The notes beneath the pieces were generated by a model. The model saw only the letters and a program-made list of their open reading frames with translations. It was not told the origin of the DNA and did no database searches. Below, piece by piece: positions 34,352-46,222 of a DNA stretch of 64,000 nt. Positions within the stretch are counted from its first letter, which is position 1, and each line of letters begins with the position of its first letter. Location: NCBI RefSeq assembly GCF_001746295.1, contig NZ_MJAH01000006.1:780187-844186 (forward strand). The letters run 5' to 3'. The DNA comes from Streptomyces sp. LUP47B (lineage in GTDB: Bacteria > Actinomycetota > Actinomycetes > Streptomycetales > Streptomycetaceae). The position numbers and the translations under genes are program-made.

Positions 34352-35056
34352 ACTGCAGCTTTCCTAGGTTGCTCAGGCGATTCCAGGTGCGCTCGACGTG
34401 TTCCCCGAACTGCACGACGTGGAACGTGTACTGGTGCCGGGGAGTGGGCTGACCTACGACTTCGTGGGGCGTCTCGCAACGTGATGAGGGACGTGTTCTC
34501 CTCGGTCCATGGGGGCGTATGAGACCGTCCTGACGCTCAGTTGGCGCTGTTTCCCACGGAGCGGCAGGTGGGTGAGGCTGCTCAAGCGGTGTGTGACAAG
34601 AAGGGTCGCGTATCAGAGCGTCATCCGTGACGTCGATGACGGAAGCGGCAACTCCCAGGATCTGCCCGCGGGCATCCTCGAGCCGTCACCAGCGCATGAC
34701 GCTCAGCTGCCCGTCACCCAGGTCGAGCCCGCATGCGTCGCCGAGAGCATGCCGCACCCGCGTGGCCGCCACGAGAACACGGGACCCCGTCCACCGCGCG
34801 GAGCTCGGCCCCCGCATGCCCCGAAGCCCCTGCCTCACCACGCGCGTCGGGTCGTACGCGCGTCGGCTTGCCGTTCATCACACCGCCGCCCCCGGCCTCC
34901 TGGGGCCGTACCAGGTCGCTGAGCGCCGCCAGGGCGGCGGCACAGGCGCCAATGCTTAGCGGGGGCGCATCACGGGACGACCGTCCGACTCACTTGTACA
35001 CAAGGGCTTCGCTTCGGCTTACCCTGATTTTCCGCACGGGTGACGAGGGGGACGAC
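34352..35056. other. 705-nt gene-poor region with probable gene remnants
   Basis: No intact gene. On the minus strand about 34530-34810 a coding-like reading (G-S-R-V-L-V-A-A-T, then L-G-D-G-Q-L-S-V-M-R-W, then V-A-A-S-V-I-D-V-T-D) is broken by TGA at 34686-34688; the last part resembles the end of a PAS domain of SpoIIE-type phosphatases. At 34380-34484 the plus strand reads I-P-G-A-L-D-V-F-P-E-L-H before a stop, possibly another remnant. The region is the border between the conserved core and the accessory block. Confidence 0.4.
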
Positions 35057-36064
35057 GTGGGGTTACGGGACGCTGGTGCCTCCGTATCGCCGGGCGCGAG
35101 TACATGGCGGGCCCGGCTGCGGGACCGTCAGGGCGCGGGCATCGCCGGGGCCGGCCTGCTCCTCACCGACAACACCGTGCTGACCTGCGCGCACGTCGTC
35201 GAAGCGGCCCTGCGTCTCCCTCGTTCCGACACCGGCGACCCTCCCCGTGGAACGGTACTGGTGGACTTTCCGGCCGCACCAGAGGGGGCGGAGCCGATTC
35301 CGGCCCGCGTGTCCGAGGGCGGCTGGCTGCGCCACCCACCGGCCGGTGATCTGGCGGTACTGGAGCTGGACGCCCCGCCGCCGCGTTCCGTGAGACCGGC
35401 GCCTGTCGGACGGTGCGGCACGGAGTCCGGCGCTCTCGTGTCGGTGTTCGGGCACCCGGTGGCCGTACCGAACGGTCTGTGGGCCCGCGGGCGGGTGGTG
35501 GGGCAGGGCGGGCCGCTGCCCGGATGGCGGCAGATCGACGGGCTGGACGCGGTCGGCGCCGCGGTGGAGCGCGGCTTCAGCGGAGCTGGGGTGTGGGACC
35601 TCGGACGCGGCCTGGTGGTCGGTGTCCTCGCCTCCGTGCTGACCCCCCGCAGGACGGAACCGGCCGCGGCAACGCCACGGGTCGCCTGGATGATCCCCCT
35701 CGACGCGCTGGGCCCCGGCCACATCCCGGCGACCCTTGTCGTGGGTCCGGTCACCGACTGGGCGGCGCCGCCCAGTTCACTGTGGCCACTGGTGGACCGG
35801 CTGCTGGCCATGGAGTCGTTCCGGGTGGACGCCGGAACACAACTTCTCGCCCAGCTGCCTCCCGAGATCACCGCCGGCATCACCCGGTCGACCAGCCCCA
35901 GACTGCAGCTCTACCACGTGGTCAGCCGCTGCGGGGAGTTCACCATGGGGCCGACCGCTCTGGCGCGTGCGGTGCGATGGATGGAAGGGGACACCCTCGC
36001 TGTGACGGACTTCGTGGCACAGGCCAAGAAGACCTGGCCGGGCCGGCTGGACGACGATGACTGA
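35057..36064 (+). CDS. Trypsin-like serine protease with C-terminal effector-associated domain
   Basis: A 335-residue protease and likely effector of the conflict system that follows. The catalytic triad is visible: His in L-T-C-A-H-V-V, Asp in G-D-L-A-V-L-E-L and Ser in R-G-F-S-G-A-G-V. No signal peptide is seen, so it should act in the cytoplasm. The last 90 residues (about 240-330, L-W-P-L-V-D-R-L-L to F-V-A-Q-A-K-K) look like an effector-associated domain of the EAD2 kind, which docks effectors to partner proteins. GTG at 35057 follows AGGGGGA; codon 3 is TTA, rare in Streptomyces. The stop overlaps the next gene by 8 nt. Confidence 0.82.
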   Translation: MGLRDAGASVSPGASTWRARLRDRQGAGIAGAGLLLTDNTVLTCAHVVEAALRLPRSDTGDPPRGTVLVDFPAAPEGAEPIPARVSEGGWLRHPPAGDLAVLELDAPPPRSVRPAPVGRCGTESGALVSVFGHPVAVPNGLWARGRVVGQGGPLPGWRQIDGLDAVGAAVERGFSGAGVWDLGRGLVVGVLASVLTPRRTEPAAATPRVAWMIPLDALGPGHIPATLVVGPVTDWAAPPSSLWPLVDRLLAMESFRVDAGTQLLAQLPPEITAGITRSTSPRLQLYHVVSRCGEFTMGPTALARAVRWMEGDTLAVTDFVAQAKKTWPGRLDDDD

Positions 36065-37544
36065 GCCCGCCGCGGCGCGCGACCCGAATGCCGCTGCCCG
36101 GCTGGCGGACGCCCTGATGAAGGTGTCGGTCCTGGACACCGTCGACGCCCGCAGGCTCTGTGTGCTCGACGCGATGGAACGACTCCGACTGCGCCTGTCG
36201 GTAGCCGAGTTCGACGACAAGAAGATGCACATCGTGACCATGGTGCGCGCCTTCGGCAGCGTCGCCGCCGGCTGGCAGCGGCTGACCGAGGCGGTGCAGC
36301 ACCTCGCCGACTACGACCTGCCTTCCCGTCACGCGGCTTCCCTGGCACACCCCGTGGTGCCCCCCGTCCTGGACGACCGCACCCAGGAGCAGCTCAAGGC
36401 GTTGCTCGAAGGGCTCGACCGCACGAACGTGCCCGAACTCCCCGCCGTCTACCACGCGGCGGCCGGTGCGCACTTCGGGCCACTGCCGGATTTCGTGCAC
36501 ACCGCCTGGGACGCCCATCAACTGCTCGCCCACACCAACCGGCCCACCGACGGCGCGCCCCGCACCGTGCGCTTCTTGCAGGGCCTCGCGATGGTCCTCA
36601 CGCCAGAGCGGGGCGACGCGGTCCGCTCCTGGGTCAGCCACCAGGTCCGGGCCGGCGCGCGGGGCCACCTGGAGGCGCAGCGCATTCTGGACGACTCTCG
36701 TGAGTCCGCGGGCGGTTCGGCCGAGAAGTCGGTGCGCCCCGCCTACCTGCTGATCAGGCTGGCACCGTCCACGACGTCACCCGATCGGGTCGACATCAGC
36801 TGCTGGGCGAGCAGCGGCGCGACCTGGGAGCCCCGCCGCCGCGAGCAGTGCTCCGTGCCCGCGTCCACGGTGCGCCGTCATGTCGCCACGCTGATCGACC
36901 GCGAGGAGAGCCGGCTGCGCACTCACCGGGGCAGTCTCGTGCTGGAGTTCATACTGCCGCTCTCGATGATGAACGAACCCGTCGAGGAATGGTCCCGCCA
37001 CGCCGCCTTCGGTCAGCACTCGGTCTGGGACAGCGAACTCGGCGGTCCACCCATCGGCACGGACTACAAGGTGGTCGTACGCAGCAAGGAGCGCATCGAC
37101 GCACTGCAGTTGCACCGAGTGTGGAACGAGCGCTGGGACGTGCTGTCGACGGATGAGCAGCAGGCCGGCACGCACCATTGCGCCGCGGGTGACGGCGCGA
37201 GAGCCGAGTCGCTCTACGAATACCTCAGACGCACGCCGGACATCGTCCTGATGATCCTGGGCTCTCCGCCCGACGACGACAACGGCAGGAAGGAGTTGCT
37301 CGCCGGGTTGCAGGCGGGGCTTCCGCTGCTCCTGTGGAGGCGCCGGGGCGCGTCCGCCGGGCATCCGGTCACCTTGGCCGAAGGCTTACTGGAAGGGGAC
37401 CTGCACGAGGTTCTGGACCGGCTGACGTGCTTGCGCTCCGCTCCCCATCCGGGGGACCATGACGCTGGGGGTTCCGGCCCTCGTCTTGCCGTGCTGTGGG
37501 ACGATCCGAACCGGCTTCCGGAAGTCCCGGAGCCCATTGCTTGA
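36057..37544 (+). CDS. VMAP (vWA-MoxR-associated protein)
   Basis: A 495-residue protein. The N-terminal 80 residues look like a helical effector-associated domain (V-D-A-R-R-L-C-V-L-D-A-M). The middle (about 100-215) is helical. The C-terminal VMAP domain (about 225-485) has L-V-L-E-F-I-L-P-L-S-M-M-N-E-P-V, W-S-R-H, and Y-K-V-V-V-R-S-K-E-R, the hallmark pattern of this family. VMAP is thought to connect effectors to the MoxR-vWA switch. A TTA codon lies at 37386-37388. ATG overlaps the protease stop (ATGACTGA). Confidence 0.78.
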   Translation: MTEPAAARDPNAAARLADALMKVSVLDTVDARRLCVLDAMERLRLRLSVAEFDDKKMHIVTMVRAFGSVAAGWQRLTEAVQHLADYDLPSRHAASLAHPVVPPVLDDRTQEQLKALLEGLDRTNVPELPAVYHAAAGAHFGPLPDFVHTAWDAHQLLAHTNRPTDGAPRTVRFLQGLAMVLTPERGDAVRSWVSHQVRAGARGHLEAQRILDDSRESAGGSAEKSVRPAYLLIRLAPSTTSPDRVDISCWASSGATWEPRRREQCSVPASTVRRHVATLIDREESRLRTHRGSLVLEFILPLSMMNEPVEEWSRHAAFGQHSVWDSELGGPPIGTDYKVVVRSKERIDALQLHRVWNERWDVLSTDEQQAGTHHCAAGDGARAESLYEYLRRTPDIVLMILGSPPDDDNGRKELLAGLQAGLPLLLWRRRGASAGHPVTLAEGLLEGDLHEVLDRLTCLRSAPHPGDHDAGGSGPRLAVLWDDPNRLPEVPEPIA

Positions 37545-37714
37545 GAGCGACCGAGGCGCAGCGTTACCCACTAAGGTGTGACCGACTTGAGCACCGGTCA
37601 CAGCACCGTTGCGATGTGACTTGCCGGCACGACATTCGACCGACGCCCGGGCCCTGACCGGCCGGGACAGGTCGCCCAGTGAGCCCGCGAGGGTTCCGGG
37701 AAGAGGGGGTGGCT
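37545..37714. other. Leader of the MoxR gene with an inverted repeat
   Basis: TAAGGT at 37572-37577 could be a -10 element. GTGACCG (37578-37584) and CGGTCAC (37595-37601) form a 7-bp inverted repeat directly after it. GAGGGGG at 37703-37709 is the ribosome-binding site. An internal promoter here is plausible. Confidence 0.35.
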
Positions 37715-38836
37715 ATGAGCGGCGGCGAACCGCGGGAGCCGCGGGTACCCGAGGGAGCGTCCGATTTCACTGGCCGCGCCCGCGACTGGTGGATCTACCG
37801 TGGCACGGGCGACGAGCCACGTGCCGCTGACCGGCCCCTCGACCAGTTGCCGCCCCCACCGCCCTGGCGAGACTTCGACGGTGGCCCCGTCGTGACCGGC
37901 CCCACCCCCCGCGACGACGCGGAGATCCGCCGCCGTCTCGGCGCTCCCGGCTTCGGTGTCCACGCCTCCTCGTCGGAGGAGGTCGACATGGTCAACGCGG
38001 CCCTTTTCCTGCGGCGGCCGCTCATCGTCACCGGCCCTCCCGGCGTGGGCAAGTCCAGCCTGGCCCACCGTGTGAGCCGCGAACTCGGACTGGGCCGCGT
38101 GCTGCGGTGGACGATCACCAGCAAGTCGGTCCTGAAGGACGGTCTGTACGCGTACGACGCGATCGGCCGGGTGCAGGAGGCTTCCGCGCGCGGCGCAGGG
38201 GACGGCCGGGACGCGCACGACGGTTCGTTATCCGACGACCCCGCTCTGCACGGACTCGGTGACTTCATCCAACTCGGCCCACTGGGCACGGCGTTGGTGC
38301 CCCATGAAATTCCCCGGGTGCTGCTCATCGACGAGTTCGACAAGGCCGACACCGACCTCGCCAACGACATGCTGGAAGTGTTCGAGGACGGTGAGTTCCG
38401 CATCCCCGAGCTGGCCCGTGTCCGTTCGCGCATGCCGAGCGTGACAGTGCACACCGACGACCCGGACGACACCCATGAGGTGCTGCACGGGCGGATGCGT
38501 TGCCGGGCCTTCCCGTTCGTGGTGATCACCAGCAACGGCGAACGCTCGCTTCCCCCGGCATTCCTGCGACGCTGTCTGACGCTGGAGATGCCGCCGCCGG
38601 ACGCCGACCGGCTCGCGGCGATGCTGGCGGCGCAGTTCGCCGACGGCGGCGGAGCCGAACGCTCCACGATGATCCGTGACTTCCTCTCGCGCGCCCTGGC
38701 GGGCGGCACCCTGGCCGCCGATCAGCTTATGAACGCCGAGTACCTCCGCCTGTCTCCCAACGGCCCCGACGCGGACTCCCTGAACCGCCTGCTGCACTCG
38801 CTGTGGCATAGGCTCGATGAAGTTGGTTCTGCATGA
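37715..38836 (+). CDS. MoxR-type AAA+ ATPase of the conflict system
   Basis: A 373-residue ATPase. A Pro-rich N-terminal segment (about 1-85) begins with D-W-W-I-Y-R-G-T-G, which is recurrent in these systems. Walker A G-P-P-G-V-G-K-S-S-L is at about 112-121, Walker B V-L-L-I-D-E-F-D-K-A-D near 208, sensor 1 V-I-T-S-N-G-E-R, and the arginine finger in F-L-R-R-C. Codon 172 is TTA (38228-38230). ATG at 37715 follows GAGGGGG; an in-frame start at 37679 has no ribosome-binding site. The stop overlaps the next ATG (ATGA). Confidence 0.88.
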   Translation: MSGGEPREPRVPEGASDFTGRARDWWIYRGTGDEPRAADRPLDQLPPPPPWRDFDGGPVVTGPTPRDDAEIRRRLGAPGFGVHASSSEEVDMVNAALFLRRPLIVTGPPGVGKSSLAHRVSRELGLGRVLRWTITSKSVLKDGLYAYDAIGRVQEASARGAGDGRDAHDGSLSDDPALHGLGDFIQLGPLGTALVPHEIPRVLLIDEFDKADTDLANDMLEVFEDGEFRIPELARVRSRMPSVTVHTDDPDDTHEVLHGRMRCRAFPFVVITSNGERSLPPAFLRRCLTLEMPPPDADRLAAMLAAQFADGGGAERSTMIRDFLSRALAGGTLAADQLMNAEYLRLSPNGPDADSLNRLLHSLWHRLDEVGSA

Positions 38837-41800
38837 TCCTGCCGCCCTCCCGCCAAGGCAGGGTGAGCAACGGCTCCGTGCCGCCCGTCGCCTCGCTCGG
38901 GGAGGCATGCGCGGAATGGACCGTGCACGCCGCGGGCGAGGTCGTCTGGCTGGCCGCGCAGATCGACCAGCGGCTTCGCGCAGCGCGCGCGCCACGGACG
39001 GCGGACGTGGACGAGGACCGGGAGGATACGGGGCCCGCCGCCCCGCCCGTTCCGGACATCGCGCCGGACGAGTACCCGGACGACCGGCCGGAGCCGGGGC
39101 CGACCGCCGAGGAGGTGCCGAGCTCACCGGAACCGTGGCCGGAGCCGCACATCCCGTCGGCTCCCGTGCCCGCACGCCCGGACGTCGTCGTGCCTTCCGA
39201 GCGGTACAGGCCGGCCGACGCGTTCGTCGGCCCGGCCCTCAAGCGGTCCCGCCTCATCGAGAAGGGACTGCGGCCGCTGCGGCTGCGGCTGCCCTCGCGC
39301 AGTACACGTGTCCTGGACGAGGAGGCGACTGCCGAGTCGCGGGCCGAGCAGGGAAACTGGCTGCCGTTCTTCCAGCCGGCGCCGGAGCGCTGGCTGACGC
39401 TGACACTGGTGGTCGACAGCGGTGCCTCGATGGGCCTGTGGGCTCGGTCGGCCCGGGAGTTCGAGGCGGCGCTGGTCGGCTCTGGCGCTTTCCGCGACGT
39501 GCGGGTGTGCCGCTGGTCGTCTCCGCGGGGCGGCCGACGGCATGCCGTCGTACCGGAGGAGACCGACCGCCACACGGTGTTCGTGCTGACCGACATGTAC
39601 GCGCATCACTGGCGGGACGGCAGTGCTCACCGCCAGCTCGCCCGCTGGGCCTCAATGGTGCCGACGGCCGTCGTCAGCACGCTTCCCGAGCACCTCTGGT
39701 CGTACCTGTCGACGGTGCCCCTGCGCAGTCTCCTGCGCAGCCCTGAGCCCGCCGCCGCCAACGCGCTGTGGTGGCACCGGCCGGACGACTTCGCGCTTCC
39801 CGGGTTCCCCGAGGAGCGGAAGCCGGCCTGGCTTCCCGTCCCCGTGCTGGAACTGACGCCGGACGCCGTGTCGCAGTGGGCCCGGTTCGTACGTCGCGAG
39901 CACGCGGCGGAGTACACGATGCGGGTGCTGCCGGTGTCAGCCACCTCGCCGGTGGCGCCACTGAGGCCACCCGCCACACCCCAGCCCCTGTCGGCAGCCG
40001 ACCACGCGCGTCGGCTGCGGGCCCAGCTGAGCCCGGTCGCCCTTCATCTGGCCCAGCTCGGCGCCGCTGTTCCGCTCAACCTGACGATCCTCCAGCTGCT
40101 GCGGCGCGAACTGCTTCCCGAGGCCCGTCCGTGGCATGTCGCCGAATTGCTGGTGAGCGGACTTCTGGTGCCTACCCCGGCTGGCCCGAATGCCGAGAAG
40201 GCGCCCGCGTCGGCCCGGGTCGACCTGGAGTTCGCCACCGAGGGCCTGCGGCAGGAGCTGCTGGCGGAAGGCACCCGCAGGGACACGGCTCTCGCGATGA
40301 AGGTGGCGTTTGACCACCTCTCGAACGCTGTTCGGGACGCCACCGGGGACGTACTGCGCCAGGTCCTGGACCTCGTCGCGCATCCGGGCGGAGCCGTGCA
40401 TGTTCCCCTGGACGGGGTGCGGCCATGGCTCGTTCCCGCGCTACCGGCCCTGACCGCCCTGGACGGGCAGCACACGGCCGCCGCCGCGCTGCTCCATGAG
40501 CGATTGCGCCGCTTCGAGGACCGGGCTCGCGCGCCCGCGCCGACCGACGCCCATTCCAGCATAAGCACCGATTGTCACTACAGTGATACACAGGGTAATG
40601 ATCGCAGTAGTTCGAAGTCCGACCTGGTCCATGGCGAGACCCCGGATCTTCTCACGGGAGAAGGCGCGGTCGGCGCAGACCAAGATGATGGAGGGAACGT
40701 GTCCGTGAGTGGCGTGCAGTCCGATGCCGCGACGACCAGGGGTGATGGGGCTCGGAAACCGCCACCCGTCTGGGGCAACGTGCCTCCACGGAACCGCGCT
40801 TTCACCGGACGCGAACAGTTGCTCGAAGACCTGCACCGGCGGCTGCAGGAGGGAACCACGGCCGTCCTTCCCGAGGCCCTGCAGGGCATGGGCGGCGTGG
40901 GCAAATCCCAACTCGCGGTGGAATATGTGTACCGCCATTTGAACGAATACCAGGTCATCTGGTGGATTCCGTCCGAGCAGTCGCAACAGATCCGTCAGGT
41001 ACTGGTGGAACTCGCCAGGCGACTCGGACTGGATGTCGGAACCGGTGAGGCCAACACCGCCGTACCCGCGGTCATAGAAGCCCTGCGCGTCGGCGAGCCG
41101 TACAAGAATTGGCTCCTCGTATTCGACAATGCGGAAGTTCCCGAAGCCGTTCGCGAATTCTTCCCCACCAATGGCCCAGGACGCATTCTAGTGACTTCTC
41201 GCAACGCCCAGTGGGCGACGGCGGCACGACCTCTTGAGGTGGACGTCTTCGCCCGCGAAGAAAGCCGCCAGCTGCTGCAGCTGCGTGCCCCGAACCTCGA
41301 CGACGACACGGCCGACCGGCTCGCCGAGACGCTGGGCGACCTCCCGCTCGGCATCGAGCAGGCCGCCGTATGGCTGTCCGAGACCGGTATGCCGGCCGAC
41401 GAGTACCTGCGGCTGTTCGAGCAGCAGGCCGCCGACCTCATGGTCAGCGATCCTCCGCCGGACTACCCGCTGTCCGTGGCCGCCGCTTGGAACGTCTCCC
41501 TGGAGCGCCTGCAGAAGAACCATCCGGCCGCTCTGCAACTTCTGCAGGTATGTGCCTTCTTCGCTCCGGAGCCGATCTCCAGGCGCCTTCTCACCGGTGT
41601 CCGTGACGCTCCGGTGCCGCCCGAACTGGCCGCGGCCCTGAGCGATCCGATCCGGTTGAGTCGCGCCATCCGGGAGATCAACCGGTACGCGTTGGCCAGG
41701 ATCAATCACGCCACCAACACCATCCAGCTGCACCGACTGGTTCAGCGGGTGCTGATCAACCAGATGCCCGACCCCCTCAAGGAGCAGATGCGCAACGGGG

Positions 41801-43242
41801 CCCACCGCCTGCTGGCCAAGGGCGACCCGGGCGCACCGGCCGACTCCCGCCAGTGGAGCCAGTACGGCGAACTGCTGCCGCACGTCATCAACAGCCGTGC
41901 GGTGGAATCAACCGACCCGTGGGTGCGGCAGCTCGTCCTGAACGAGATCCAGTACATGTTCACGTGGGGCGACCATGAGGGCTCGCGCGATCTGGCGAAG
42001 CAGGCGTACGAGACGTGGCGCGGCATCGACGGGGAGCGGGCGGAGCCGGTGCTGATGGCCGCCAAGCTCTACAGCGACGCGCTGCGGATCCTCGGGCACT
42101 ACCGCGTCGCATACGAGCTGGACCAGCGCACGCACGAGCTGATGAGCGAAACCCTCGGTCCCGAGCACGAGATGACCCTGGAGATCACCGGCATGCTCGC
42201 CTGGGACCTGCGCATGCGCGGCGACTTCGGCGCGGCCTCCGAGCTCGACCGGCAGTCCTTCGAGACCAGTCGGCGTCTGTTCGGTCCCAACGACCTGTCC
42301 ACGCTGATCGTGGCGCACCGCGTGGCACTGAACCTGCGCCTGACCGGTGACTTCCGTGAGGCGCTGGATCTAGACCAGGACACCCACCGCCGCAAGGTGG
42401 AGGAACTCGGCGAGAACGCCCTCTCCACCCTGGGCACCCTGGCGGGCGTGGTCGTCGACCGTCAGGAGGCCGGGGAGTACATCGAGGCCCGCGACCAGCA
42501 GCAGGACGTGGTGGGGCGCTACGAGTACAACTACGGCCCCACCAACCCCACCACAGTCTCCGGCTACCGCGGACTGGCCGTCGCCGAGCGGCGGGCGGGG
42601 CGCCACGAGGAAGCCATCGAGCTGTCCGCCAAGGCGCTGACCCTGTTCCGCAACCGGTACGGCGACAACTACCCCGACACGTTGGCTGCGTTGCTCGCCC
42701 ACTCCGTCGACGTGCGGCACAGCGGCGACCTCCCGCGCGCGCTGGAGCTGAGCGGCCAGGGCTGCAAGGGGTACGAGCGGCTCTTCGGCGCCCACCACCC
42801 GCACACGCTCGGCGCCCAGGTCAACCACGCCATCTGCCTGCGCCTCCTGGGCCGTTGCGAGGAGGCGCGTGCGATGAACGAACGGCTGCTGTCGGCGCTG
42901 GCCGAGTCGCTGGGCGAGGACCACCCGAACACCCTGGCGTGCGCTACCAACCTCGCCGCAGACCTGTACGAGTTGGGCCAGGTACAGGCCTCCGTGGAGC
43001 TGAGCACCCGCACACTCGACCAGAGCCGCCGCCGCCTCGGCGAGGACCACCCGGCCGCGCTGGCCACGGCCGTCAACCTCTCGGTGGGCCTGCGGTTGCT
43101 GGGCCGCACGGAGGAAGCCGACGACCTCCACGCGGACACGATGACGCGCTATGAGCGAGCGCTCGGCGCCGACCACCCGGCAACGGCCGCCGCCGCCGCC
43201 CACAAGCCGGCGAACTGCGACATCGACCCGATGCCGCTGTAA
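38833..43242 (+). CDS. SAV_2336-type vWA-like region fused to NB-ARC ATPase and TPR repeats (FxsT-type STAND protein)
   Basis: A 1469-residue fusion. Residues about 1-580 match the SAV_2336 N-terminal type: a Pro/Glu-rich linker, then a vWA-like fold starting L-T-L-V-V-D-S-G-A-S-M near residue 193, where the MIDAS motif is degenerate (D-S-G-A-S for DxSxS). A polar linker (about 575-645) leads to an NB-ARC unit that opens V-W-G-N-V-P-P-R-N-R-A-F-T-G-R-E, with P-loop G-M-G-G-V-G-K-S near 685 and a kinase-2 motif W-L-L-V-F-D-N. About nine TPR-like repeats (about 1050-1455) follow, each with L-G-x-x-H-P-x-T-L. The second part alone is the FxSxx-COOH system TPR protein. It completes the vWA-MoxR-VMAP set. 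Confidence 0.85.
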   Translation: MILPPSRQGRVSNGSVPPVASLGEACAEWTVHAAGEVVWLAAQIDQRLRAARAPRTADVDEDREDTGPAAPPVPDIAPDEYPDDRPEPGPTAEEVPSSPEPWPEPHIPSAPVPARPDVVVPSERYRPADAFVGPALKRSRLIEKGLRPLRLRLPSRSTRVLDEEATAESRAEQGNWLPFFQPAPERWLTLTLVVDSGASMGLWARSAREFEAALVGSGAFRDVRVCRWSSPRGGRRHAVVPEETDRHTVFVLTDMYAHHWRDGSAHRQLARWASMVPTAVVSTLPEHLWSYLSTVPLRSLLRSPEPAAANALWWHRPDDFALPGFPEERKPAWLPVPVLELTPDAVSQWARFVRREHAAEYTMRVLPVSATSPVAPLRPPATPQPLSAADHARRLRAQLSPVALHLAQLGAAVPLNLTILQLLRRELLPEARPWHVAELLVSGLLVPTPAGPNAEKAPASARVDLEFATEGLRQELLAEGTRRDTALAMKVAFDHLSNAVRDATGDVLRQVLDLVAHPGGAVHVPLDGVRPWLVPALPALTALDGQHTAAAALLHERLRRFEDRARAPAPTDAHSSISTDCHYSDTQGNDRSSSKSDLVHGETPDLLTGEGAVGADQDDGGNVSVSGVQSDAATTRGDGARKPPPVWGNVPPRNRAFTGREQLLEDLHRRLQEGTTAVLPEALQGMGGVGKSQLAVEYVYRHLNEYQVIWWIPSEQSQQIRQVLVELARRLGLDVGTGEANTAVPAVIEALRVGEPYKNWLLVFDNAEVPEAVREFFPTNGPGRILVTSRNAQWATAARPLEVDVFAREESRQLLQLRAPNLDDDTADRLAETLGDLPLGIEQAAVWLSETGMPADEYLRLFEQQAADLMVSDPPPDYPLSVAAAWNVSLERLQKNHPAALQLLQVCAFFAPEPISRRLLTGVRDAPVPPELAAALSDPIRLSRAIREINRYALARINHATNTIQLHRLVQRVLINQMPDPLKEQMRNGAHRLLAKGDPGAPADSRQWSQYGELLPHVINSRAVESTDPWVRQLVLNEIQYMFTWGDHEGSRDLAKQAYETWRGIDGERAEPVLMAAKLYSDALRILGHYRVAYELDQRTHELMSETLGPEHEMTLEITGMLAWDLRMRGDFGAASELDRQSFETSRRLFGPNDLSTLIVAHRVALNLRLTGDFREALDLDQDTHRRKVEELGENALSTLGTLAGVVVDRQEAGEYIEARDQQQDVVGRYEYNYGPTNPTTVSGYRGLAVAERRAGRHEEAIELSAKALTLFRNRYGDNYPDTLAALLAHSVDVRHSGDLPRALELSGQGCKGYERLFGAHHPHTLGAQVNHAICLRLLGRCEEARAMNERLLSALAESLGEDHPNTLACATNLAADLYELGQVQASVELSTRTLDQSRRRLGEDHPAALATAVNLSVGLRLLGRTEEADDLHADTMTRYERALGADHPATAAAAAHKPANCDIDPMPL

Positions 43243-43511: not shown

Positions 43512-45410
43512 TCAACCCGCGTCCCGTACCGCCGGAGTCCGGCCGATCCAGTCGGCCAGGGGCACGGGGTCGGGGGTGGCTCTGTGGGGCGCGGTCGTTT
43601 GTTCGTAGACGGCGCGGACCAGTTCCGGATGGGCGAGGAGGGCGTGGGCGGCGATGGGTTGACCGGTTTCGGCCAGTGCGAGCCCGAGGCCGGCCCAGGC
43701 CGACGCGGAGCCGGGGTGCTTGGCGAGGACGTCCCGGTAGCCTCGTACGGCCTGGTCGGCGGAGCCGCGCAGCAGGTCGACGTCGGCCGCGGCCAGGGTC
43801 TCGGGCCGGCCGTCCTGGGTCGATCCGAGGACCGCCCTCTGTTCCAACGCGCCGGAGTCGGCCAGCAGTACCCGTCGCAGTTCGCTGCGGAGGTCGGGGG
43901 TACCGGAGTGCGGGTCGGGGCGCAGCGAGGGCCGCACCACGCGGGCGGTCTCGGGCTCCGCGCCGCACCGCCATGCGTCGGCCACGACCGCGACCTGGTC
44001 GGGGGGCAGCCGTAGGTGCCGGGCTCGCCACACCGCGCGCAGGTCGGCGGTCTCGGACCGGGCCAGCGCAAGTGGGCGTCCCGGCACCGGCTCGGCGTGC
44101 CAGGCCGAGGTCTCCTCGGCCATGCGGGTGACGAACAGCCGTCCGGCGTCGGTCAGTCCGCTCGACTCCAGCAGGGCTTCGAGGGCGCCAGCGACCGCGT
44201 CCCGCCACACGGCGAACTCGAAGTGCGCCAGGTCGGCCGGGGGACCGCCGAGCGCCCCGCGCTCCACCCGCCAGAAATCCGCCACTCCGGCGAACGCGTA
44301 GGTGCCGTGCAGCAGGCCCGACAGCGGCCTCGGGTCGCCTCGCCAGGGGGCGTAGTGGAGCGGACCGTCGTCCTCACAGAGCGGAAGCTGGTGGAGGAGT
44401 GCGTTGAGGACGGAGTGCCGTGCCTCGTGCACCAGCGTGACGGCGAGTTCCGTGGCGTCGGTCGGCAGCGACAACAGGGCGCTGCCGACCGCCTCGTTGT
44501 AGGAGGCGCTCGCGGTGCGGAACCGGGAGTCGGTCGGTAACGGCACCACCACCCGCAGGGACTCGGTCAGCAGGCTCGCCGCCCGCGGGTGGCGGCCGTG
44601 CAGGACCTCACCGGCCTCACCCAGCAACCGCCGCCAACGGCGTGTCTCGGCGCCCGCCAGGCCCGCCGTGGAGGCCTGTGCCAGGTCCCCCCGGAAATCC
44701 CGGTAGGGGTCGCCGTCCTCGAGTACCAGCGGCGGATCCTGGGGCCGGGGGCTCCACGAAATGCGGTGCGACGGCTCCCACGCGCCGGACGGCTCGCGCA
44801 GATCGACGGGCAGACTCATCCGCCGCCCGCCGACGACAAGCCCCGCCGGGCCCTTCCCCGGGTGCGGAGCGGTCAGGGTCACGACATCCGGCGACTGCGC
44901 TCCGGGGCCGTCGGCGGCGGTCGCCGGAAGCCGGAAGCGGCCCAGAGTGGGCAGCGTCAACAGGGCCCCACGGACCGGTAAGCGAATCGTTCCTTCGACG
45001 CCGGCGCGCAGGGCTCCGGCGGCCGCCAGGCAGTGCAGGTACCCGGCCTCTGCCCACAGGGGCGTCGTGGCATGGGGATGTTCACCCGAGAGCAGTCGCT
45101 TGAGCGTACGAACGGCCCAGATCCCGGTGCCGGGGTGCTCCAGCAGGTCGGCGACCACGTCCGGGCGGGCCTCCTCCACGCGCAGCAGTACCTCCAGGGC
45201 GGCTGCGGGAGGCAGGGGCGTGCCGGCCAGTGGCTGCCGCGCGGATTCCACGACGGCACGCAGCATGAGCATGCGTCTGCTCCGCTCGACGGCCCACAGC
45301 CGACGGGCGGTGCAGGGTCCCACGCGCCCGACGGCCAGGTCGTCGAGGTCGGATCTCGGGGTGCGATGCTTGCCCAGCACGGCACGCGAACCTGAGGACG
45401 GCTGGATCAT
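43512..45410 (-). CDS. aKG-HExxH-type peptide beta-hydroxylase
   Basis: A 632-residue RiPP-modification enzyme. The zinc/iron motif H-E-A-R-H lies in T-L-V-H-E-A-R-H-S-V near residue 325, with further conserved parts W-R-G-D-P-R-P-L-S-G-L-L-H-G and W-R-D-A-V. Members are 2-oxoglutarate-dependent hydroxylases of precursor peptides in cyclophane/FxSxx systems. The C-terminal part (about 540-610) has a TPR-like repeat (Y-R-D-V-L-A-K-H-P-G). TTA codons occur at 44979-44981 and 44538-44540 (minus strand). ATG at 45410 lies 6 nt after the precursor gene stop, so both share a transcript. Confidence 0.85.
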   Translation of the reverse strand: MIQPSSGSRAVLGKHRTPRSDLDDLAVGRVGPCTARRLWAVERSRRMLMLRAVVESARQPLAGTPLPPAAALEVLLRVEEARPDVVADLLEHPGTGIWAVRTLKRLLSGEHPHATTPLWAEAGYLHCLAAAGALRAGVEGTIRLPVRGALLTLPTLGRFRLPATAADGPGAQSPDVVTLTAPHPGKGPAGLVVGGRRMSLPVDLREPSGAWEPSHRISWSPRPQDPPLVLEDGDPYRDFRGDLAQASTAGLAGAETRRWRRLLGEAGEVLHGRHPRAASLLTESLRVVVPLPTDSRFRTASASYNEAVGSALLSLPTDATELAVTLVHEARHSVLNALLHQLPLCEDDGPLHYAPWRGDPRPLSGLLHGTYAFAGVADFWRVERGALGGPPADLAHFEFAVWRDAVAGALEALLESSGLTDAGRLFVTRMAEETSAWHAEPVPGRPLALARSETADLRAVWRARHLRLPPDQVAVVADAWRCGAEPETARVVRPSLRPDPHSGTPDLRSELRRVLLADSGALEQRAVLGSTQDGRPETLAAADVDLLRGSADQAVRGYRDVLAKHPGSASAWAGLGLALAETGQPIAAHALLAHPELVRAVYEQTTAPHRATPDPVPLADWIGRTPAVRDAG

Positions 45411-45416
45411 GTGGTG

Positions 45417-45626
45417 CTAGGACTCATCGCCGTCACACTCGGCGGCCAGATAGGGGCTGCCCGCACCACCGCTGGCGCTCTGGAACGCCGACCTCTCGTC
45501 CAGGTGACGTACCAACGTCCGCAACGCGTCCGCGAGCAGGGGGTCGTGCAGGGTCATCACCCCGTGGAGCCCACATCGGCTGAGATCGACCAGATCAGTT
45601 TCGAACTCGGTCGCAGTAGTCGTCAC
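45417..45626 (-). CDS. FxSxx-type RiPP precursor peptide with extended C-terminus
   Basis: A 69-residue peptide. The leader T-D-L-V-D-L-S-R-C-G-L-H and D-P-L-L-A-D-A-L-R-T-L-V-R-H-L matches FxSxx-COOH precursors, which normally stop directly after F-x-S-x-x. Here the core A-F-Q-S-A-S is followed by a further 17 residues (G-G-A-G-S-P-Y-L-A-A-E-C-D-G-D-E-S). GTG at 45626 has GGGGG upstream. It is the first gene of the unit with the HExxH hydroxylase. No radical SAM enzyme, needed to make the Phe-Ser cyclophane, is encoded in the window. Confidence 0.75.
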   Translation of the reverse strand: MTTTATEFETDLVDLSRCGLHGVMTLHDPLLADALRTLVRHLDERSAFQSASGGAGSPYLAAECDGDES

Positions 45627-45877
45627 GTCCCGGTGCCCCCTAGTCGGCGCGTCGCGATCGCTTGCAGCACATCCACAGGCTTCCTTTCATACTGACCCTT
45701 CGATTGCGTCACCGAAAGGGCACCCTGAAGCCACATGAGCCGGAAGCGGGACGTTGGAAGGGTTAGTTCAGGCCACCGCTGCGCCGCCGCGAGGGGAGGT
45801 GGGGCAGGGTTGGTCGGACATGGCGGCGGGCACAGAGAACCCGTCGGAACGACGGAGCGGGACGGGGGGACACTACC

Positions 45878-46222
45878 GTGGGTGAGTTGCTGCGTTTCGA
45901 GTTGGAGGACGGCGGGTCCGTCGTTGCCCAGATGGACCACATCGGCGGCGGGGTCGTGGACGCGACCGGCGCGTCCGACTTGGTGGCTCGGGCGACCAGT
46001 TCGTTCGAGGGGGCGTTGGAAGGCGTGCGCCGCGCGGCGGCCGTCACGCTGCGCCGCATGAGCGAGTTGCCCCAGCGCCCGGACGAGGTCACGGTCCAGT
46101 TCGGGATCCAGTTGGACGCGGAGGTGGGAGCGGTCATCGCGCGTACCGGCGCGCAGGGCCACCTCCAGGTGCAGGTGACGTGGCGCCGTACGCCTTCGGA
46201 GGACGAGAGCGACACCGGCTGA
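45878..46222 (+). CDS. Trypsin-co-occurring domain 1 protein (CU044_2847 family)
   Basis: A 114-residue beta-rich protein. The pattern L-L-R-F-E-L-E-D-G-G-S-V-V, a central helix S-F-E-G-A-L-E-G-V-R-R-A-A, and V-T-V-Q-F-G-I-Q-L-D-A-E-V-G-A-V-I-A-R-T-G match the trypco1 domain, found as a partner of trypsin-like proteases in conflict systems. It probably acts with the protease at 35057. GTG start after GGGGGGA. Divergent from the precursor gene, sharing a 251-nt control region. Confidence 0.78.
   Translation: MGELLRFELEDGGSVVAQMDHIGGGVVDATGASDLVARATSSFEGALEGVRRAAAVTLRRMSELPQRPDEVTVQFGIQLDAEVGAVIARTGAQGHLQVQVTWRRTPSEDESDTG

What the first reader, a model, noticed from the sequence alone, without database searches (positions are those of the whole stretch)
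43512..46222. FxSxx-like precursor with a tail, HExxH hydroxylase and no radical SAM enzyme
The precursor has the FxSxx leader pattern but its F-Q-S core is followed by 17 extra residues ending in C-D-G-D-E-S. The neighbouring gene is an aKG-HExxH hydroxylase. The radical SAM maturase normally needed for cyclophane formation is missing from the window. Either the hydroxylase works alone on this peptide, or the maturase is encoded elsewhere, or a protease trims the tail; the cluster already holds a trypsin-like protease and a trypsin-co-occurring protein.
Basis: partly seen in the sequence, partly recalled or inferred. Interest (0 to 1): 0.8.

Follow-up and report, generated by a model that had tools for sequence, protein, structure and literature searches.

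The report
Peptide–hydroxylase pair without radical SAM
A small, fast-evolving peptide and the iron enzyme next to it belong to a known Streptomyces conflict system that normally has no radical SAM enzyme; the resemblance to cyclophane (FxSxx) peptides is accidental, and the supposed extra tail is the conserved working end of the peptide.

Summary
The objects are real: a 69-aa precursor (45626-45417, -), an αKG-HExxH enzyme (45410-43512, -) and Trypco1 (45878-46222, +), beside trypsin-EAD2, VMAP, MoxR and a fused vWA–NB-ARC–TPR protein. The FxSxx reading fails. Among 12 aligned close precursors, F-x-S is intact in only 2, while Gln49, Cys64 and (11/12) Asp65 are kept: the "17 extra residues" are the conserved core. 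The genome does hold an FxsB, but on another contig, with its own precursor ending FNSAL-COOH. Nine of 13 distinct relative genomes with this locus have no FxsB at all, so missing radical SAM is normal here. This matches the radical-SAM-free peptide-processing modules that Kaur et al. 2020 (eLife) described for vWA-MoxR ternary systems, but the window's core (Q…GG…SPY.AA.CD.[DE]) fits none of their four core types. Core types follow the HExxH tree (14 changes, minimum 13, shuffled mean 27.8). The enzyme fold matches SjiH and ChlH, with catalytic residues invariant. Most likely the enzyme acts alone and β-hydroxylates the core, best candidate Asp65; site and biological role are inferred. New variant of a known kind.

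The parts
45417..45626 (-). Precursor peptide, 69 aa, GTG start with a GGGGG ribosome-binding-like stretch upstream; leader E-T-D-LVDLS..GL, core Q49...GG...SPY.AAECDGDES
45420..45485 (-). Codons 48-69: the stretch read as FxS plus 17-residue tail; here the core, with Q49, C64 and D65 conserved and F48/S50 variable
43512..45410 (-). Stand-alone αKG-HExxH-type peptide hydroxylase (632 aa), HEARH at residues 328-332, PWRGDPR at 355-361, C-terminal TPR-like helices
45878..46222 (+). Trypsin-co-occurring domain 1 (Trypco1) protein
38833..43242 (+). SAV_2336 N-terminal (vWA component) fused to NB-ARC (AP-ATPase) and TPRs; convergent with the HExxH gene
37679..38836 (+). MoxR-type AAA ATPase of the ternary system
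36057..37544 (+). VMAP: EAD2 + VMAP-M0 + VMAP-C
34733..36064 (+). Trypsin-like peptidase fused to EAD2; His/Asp/Ser triad motifs visible (TCAHVV, GDLAVLEL, GFSGAGVW)

Best explanation
The pair is the radical-SAM-free peptide module of a vWA-MoxR-VMAP ternary conflict system with an AP-ATPase (NB-ARC) fused to the vWA protein. The peptide's conserved leader (E[ST]xLVDLSxxxL) is expected to be held by the HExxH enzyme, an Fe(II)/α-ketoglutarate oxygenase, which modifies the variable C-terminal core without prior cyclophane formation. The likeliest reaction is β-hydroxylation of the core, best candidate the near-invariant Asp65 of the C-D pair, then Gln49 or Pro58. The modified peptide then acts as a signal or toxin that tunes the NB-ARC–TPR and protease effectors. 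Shown here: gene order, conservation, fold, intact catalytic residues, independence from FxsB, and co-diversification of core and enzyme. Inferred: leader binding, hydroxylation, target residue and signalling role.
For: Family and fold: TIGR04267 153 bits; AlphaFold2 model pLDDT 91.8, best Foldseek hits SjiH (22ob, E 8.5e-20, target TM 0.89) and the ChlBH HExxH domain (8s5f, E 5.8e-8). H328, E329, H332, W356, R357, P360, R361 invariant in 50 homologues, D359 in 48. Context: VMAP, MoxR, trypsin-EAD2 and vWA–NB-ARC–TPR; a vWA–NB-ARC–TPR homologue lies near the HExxH gene in 37 of 39 genus loci, and FxsB in 0 of 39 plus 0 of 11 further loci, with the control locus detected. FxsB independence: 9 of 13 distinct genomes without FxsB. 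Core conservation. Core type tracks the enzyme tree: 14 changes, minimum 13, shuffled mean 27.8. One relative (L075) reads precursor and enzyme as one open frame. Precedent: stand-alone HExxH enzymes hydroxylate Gln (PMC12636437) and Pro (PMC13060819); ChlBH hydroxylates Asp and His (cited in PMC12636437). The rSAM-free class is in Kaur 2020 (PMC7159879).
Against: No modification was measured. ChlBH hydroxylation needs a preinstalled cyclophane (PMC12636437), which this system cannot be shown to make. HExxH enzymes have varied reactions that, per PMC13060819, cannot at present be predicted. In one subclade (L036, L074, L104, L105) the core is longer, and C-D aligns only across a large gap (C-H in L105). 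Clustering of core types on the tree also follows from shared ancestry.
Confidence: 0.62

Rival explanations
1. The HExxH enzyme cuts the peptide rather than, or as well as, hydroxylating it: oxidative backbone cleavage near the C terminus leaves an amidated peptide, as PflC/PosC do at a C-terminal ARMD.
For: PflC/PosC are αKG-HExxH enzymes that hydroxylate Gln and remove a C-terminal ARMD, with Ala the critical residue, and PflC shows hydrolytic activity without the leader. Many sister precursors end in xRxD (SRFD, ERYD, KRFD) and the window core holds Ala-Ala before the C-D pair. Kaur et al. also assumed cleavage.
Against: The window core has no RxD and no Arg or Lys at all. R, M and D of ARMD were not critical in PosC. 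The AA positions vary in relatives.
Confidence: 0.17
2. It is a true FxSxx peptide whose cyclophane is made in trans by the FxsB on contig 12; the tail is then trimmed or hydroxylated.
For: The genome does encode FxsB (580 bits). F-Q-S is present in the window and in L100.
Against: FxS is lost in most close relatives. 9 of 13 relative genomes lack FxsB. That FxsB has its own precursor ending FNSAL-COOH. There is no similarity to that precursor. 17 residues follow the FQSAS motif.
Confidence: 0.03
3. The local trypsin-EAD2 protease matures the peptide, for example by cutting after Arg45 and releasing a K/R-free 24-residue core.
For: No K/R downstream of the E-R pair in the window, L098, L100 and L101. 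Trypsin and Trypco1 were detected in the CD-type loci held at sufficient length, but not in the extended-core loci L036, L104-L106.
Against: The wider HExxH family keeps precursors where no trypsin or Trypco1 was detected. L035 and L076 have Arg inside the core. The residue after Arg in L100 is Pro, a poor trypsin site. The association rests on about one evolutionary event.
Confidence: 0.1
4. The peptide is not an enzyme substrate but a small regulatory or antitoxin-like protein co-transcribed with a metallopeptidase.
For: No modification has been measured for any member found here; no library model recognises the peptide.
Against: Leader-conserved, core-variable evolution, core type tracking the enzyme and similarity of the enzyme to αKG oxygenases rather than peptidases.
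Confidence: 0.08

Closest known systems
Peptide-processing module of vWA-MoxR-VMAP ternary systems, RxD and acidic types (Kaur et al. 2020, PMC7159879)
   Same: HExxH gene plus small diverging peptide, no radical SAM, AP-ATPase directly fused to the vWA protein, VMAP, MoxR, trypsin/Trypco1
   Different: The core is neither RxD nor four contiguous acids but Q...GG...SPY.AA.CD.[DE]; and the HExxH protein is better read as an αKG oxygenase than as the metallopeptidase they assumed
FxSxx-COOH / FxsB / FxsBH cyclophane system
   Same: HExxH-domain homology, TPR protein family NF040586, small precursor next to the enzyme
   Different: No FxsB at the locus, FxS not conserved and not at the C terminus, AP-ATPase fused rather than separate; the genome's real FxsA–FxsBH pair is on contig 12
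PflC/PosC stand-alone αKG-HExxH enzymes (PMC12636437)
   Same: HExxH enzyme acting on a leader-bearing precursor without radical SAM
   Different: Those act with an MNIO-nitroreductase in Pseudomonas on poly-Gln/ARMD peptides
ChlBH HExxH domain (8s5f) and SjiH (22nu/22ob)
   Same: Fold and the HExxH and PWRxDxR motifs
   Different: 22nu/22ob are deposited as a radical SAM core domain-containing protein and ChlBH is a radical SAM fusion; the window enzyme is stand-alone with a C-terminal TPR-like region

Membership tests
FxSxx-COOH cyclophane peptide (FxsA) | F-x-S-x-x at the C terminus | tested here: not met
   F is the 22nd residue from the C terminus; FxS intact in 2 of 12 close precursors
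FxSxx-COOH cyclophane peptide (FxsA) | FxsB-type radical SAM/SPASM gene adjacent | tested here: not met
   0 of 39 plus 0 of 11 loci; 9 of 13 distinct genomes have none anywhere
FxSxx-COOH cyclophane peptide (FxsA) | Match to a curated FxsA model | tested here: inconclusive
   No NCBIfam hit, but the genome's evident FxsA (FNSAL end) also gets none
αKG-HExxH-type peptide β-hydroxylase (TIGR04267) | Profile match and intact HExxH plus WRxDPR residues | tested here: met
   153 bits against cut-off 40; invariance in A2; fold match to 22ob and 8s5f
αKG-HExxH-type peptide β-hydroxylase (TIGR04267) | Fe(II)/αKG-dependent oxidation of a peptide | not testable with these tools
   needs biochemistry
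vWA-MoxR-VMAP ternary system with peptide-processing module (Kaur 2020) | MoxR + vWA + VMAP genes with an AP-ATPase | tested here: met
vWA-MoxR-VMAP ternary system with peptide-processing module (Kaur 2020) | AP-ATPase fused to the vWA protein when the peptide is not FxSxx type | tested here: met
   SAV_2336 N-terminal + NB-ARC + TPR in one 1469-aa ORF
vWA-MoxR-VMAP peptide, RxD type | R-x-D near the C terminus | tested here: not met
   no Arg in the window core
[quoted passage not shown]
   the core ends AAECDGDES: at most two adjacent acids

The most novel reading that the evidence does not exclude
The CD-type core is a new peptide class on which a stand-alone αKG-HExxH enzyme does more than add oxygen, for example forming a Tyr59/aromatic–Cys64 crosslink or oxidatively cutting near the C-D tail, to make a signal read by the fused vWA–NB-ARC–TPR protein. 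An αKG-enzyme Cys–Tyr crosslink is reported in RiPPs (Xia et al. 2025, cited in PMC12636437), but Tyr59 is Phe in L076/L103, which weakens that version.
Probability: 0.1. Interest if true: 0.75.

Novelty: new variant of a known kind. Interest (0 to 1): 0.42.

Why it matters
It corrects the reading of a tempting but false FxSxx case. It shows that the radical-SAM-free peptide modules of these NLR-like bacterial conflict systems carry far more core types than the published FxSxx, RxD and acidic ones, and that these cores diversify with an αKG-HExxH enzyme that was taken for a protease in 2020. That makes a direct test possible: which residue is oxidised, and whether the modified peptide switches the NB-ARC–TPR protein.

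Tried and rejected
FxSxx with a tail: rejected by conservation. Maturase in trans: disfavoured. A frameshift restoring a normal FxSxx end in relatives: not found. L107 has an indel that moves its core out of frame, but the shifted end is not FxSxx and the other frame reads GSPYLAADCGNDDLPS. Profile search of the precursor (NCBIfam, Pfam): uninformative, since the true FxsA also misses. PADLOC: no meaningful match for the system, only weak AAA hits to MoxR. The paper searches found nothing on this core type.

Full report
What is there. The minus-strand ORF 45626-45417 (GTG start, 69 aa) is followed after 6 nt by the 632-aa HExxH ORF 45410-43512; Trypco1 is divergent at 45878-46222. Upstream on the plus strand lie trypsin-EAD2 (34733-36064), a VMAP (EAD2, VMAP-M0, VMAP-C; 36057-37544), a MoxR-type ATPase (37679-38836) and a 1469-aa SAV_2336/vWA–NB-ARC–TPR protein (38833-43242). 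This is the gene set of the vWA-MoxR-VMAP ternary systems of Kaur et al. 2020 (PMC7159879).

What Kaur et al. already say. They describe a peptide-processing module made of an HExxH-type (zincin-like) 'metallopeptidase' and a small, rapidly diverging precursor, with four C-terminal types: FxSxx, RxD, acidic and FtsH-associated. A radical-SAM/SPASM gene accompanies the FxSxx type (a different radical SAM goes with the FtsH type). In the RxD and acidic types the AP-ATPase is fused directly to the vWA protein. The window has the fused form, so the absence of radical SAM is what that scheme predicts.

The precursor is coding and conserved. Close relatives (HExxH 47-63% identical) were fetched from the genus and from public genomes; the named ones are Streptomyces. 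Nearly all have a precursor at the same place with the same GTG start context; L107 has an indel and L075 a fusion (below). In five close sequences the other two frames carry stops in most. Window against L098: 10 of 47 leader codons but 10 of 22 core codons differ in amino acid, the usual leader/core contrast of modified peptides.

FxS is chance. In a 12-sequence alignment, residue 48 is F in 2 sequences and A or G in the rest; residue 50 is S in 6. Q49 and C64 are in all 12, D65, P58 and G53 in 11. In the four longer-tailed rows the C-D alignment spans a large gap. The supposed tail is therefore the conserved part. The peptide has no BLASTP similarity to the genome's own FxsA but its leader aligns to an RxD-type precursor at E 3e-7. 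An alignment of nine other precursors of the wider family with two CD-type ones keeps L12, D14 and L20 (numbering of its first sequence) while the C termini differ entirely.

Where the genome's FxsB is. One FxsB (580 bits) lies at G000:C12:290072-291154. Directly upstream is an ORF ending ...RRPAPFNSAL-COOH, a textbook FxSxx end. Its HExxH extension is the inactivated form (NF040587, 308 bits; no HExxH in the sequence). It thus forms its own pair. Of 14 handles with a close relative of the window locus (13 distinct, since G431 and G594 give the same coordinates), nine genomes have no FxsB at E <= 1e-20. These include the one-contig G308 and the four-contig G285.

The wider family. Of 199 genus genomes, 135 have a match to the HExxH protein (this may include radical-SAM fusions). 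Of 39 loci read at length, 37 have a vWA–NB-ARC–TPR homologue nearby and none has FxsB, with the contig-12 control detected. Precursor ends include SRFD/ERYD (RxD), YNPQRDE, CVS, SGC, GDPKSS, EEMRF-type and CGTAP-type. I assigned these labels by eye. On a tree of 50 HExxH proteins the labels need 14 changes (minimum 13, shuffled mean 27.8, 0 of 200 as low), so core and enzyme diversify together, though shared ancestry alone also clusters labels. The window sits in a fully supported 13-row clade of CD-type and derived extended cores.

The enzyme. The model (pLDDT 91.8, pTM 0.92) matches SjiH (22ob, TM 0.89 by target) and the ChlBH HExxH domain (8s5f) far above anything else, and not a classical peptidase. 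HExxH and WRxDPR are invariant or nearly so in 50 homologues. ChlBH is an Fe/αKG β-hydroxylase (Morishita 2024, cited in PMC12636437). Stand-alone members act without a cyclophane radical SAM on Gln (PflC/PosC) and Pro (PesO). I therefore infer oxidation of the core, most likely β-hydroxylation, with Asp65 the first candidate. None of this was measured.

Role. Kaur et al. [quoted passage not shown] I adopt that as inference. Trypsin-EAD2/Trypco1 is not an obligatory partner: neither was detected at many loci that keep the peptide–enzyme pair. A relation between their absence and the extended core in L036, L104-L106 is seen, but it amounts to about one event; those detections used the window's proteins as tblastn queries, so distant homologues could be missed.

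Verdict. Real feature, mis-titled: a new core type in a known module. Interest is moderate because the family-level behaviour was predicted in 2020, while the core diversity and the αKG reading are worth testing.

Noticed in passing
L075:1477-3747 (-) (G285): Precursor leader and HExxH enzyme read as one continuous 756-aa open frame with no stop between them: an apparent natural precursor–enzyme fusion, or loss of the precursor stop.
   Followed up: partly
L053:7340-7580 (-) and L001:424-3021 (-) (G000 contig 12): Canonical FxSxx precursor (ends FNSAL) next to an FxsBH whose hydroxylase extension has lost HExxH, with a TPR/NB-ARC homologue about 5 kb away.
   Followed up: partly
L036, L074, L104, L105 precursors: Subclade with leader Cys18 changed to Trp/Arg and a long Pro/Glu-rich core ending (L/V)PC; neither trypsin-EAD2 nor Trypco1 was detected at L036, L104 and L105 (L074 was held only in short form).
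   Followed up: partly
L067, L086, L087, L089, L091 precursors: Another radical-SAM-free core class with AFGT at the leader/core junction followed by a long tail with (E/D)EMRF or EEMRY; it also looks FxS-like.
   Followed up: no
L037, L038, L042: Two divergent HExxH genes, each with its own precursor, share one locus.
   Followed up: no
RxD-type precursors (e.g. L043, L049, L070): Their xRxD-COOH ends resemble the C-terminal ARMD removed by PflC/PosC and the R(V/T)DN of PesA, all partners of αKG-HExxH enzymes; possibly a shared recognition element.
   Followed up: no
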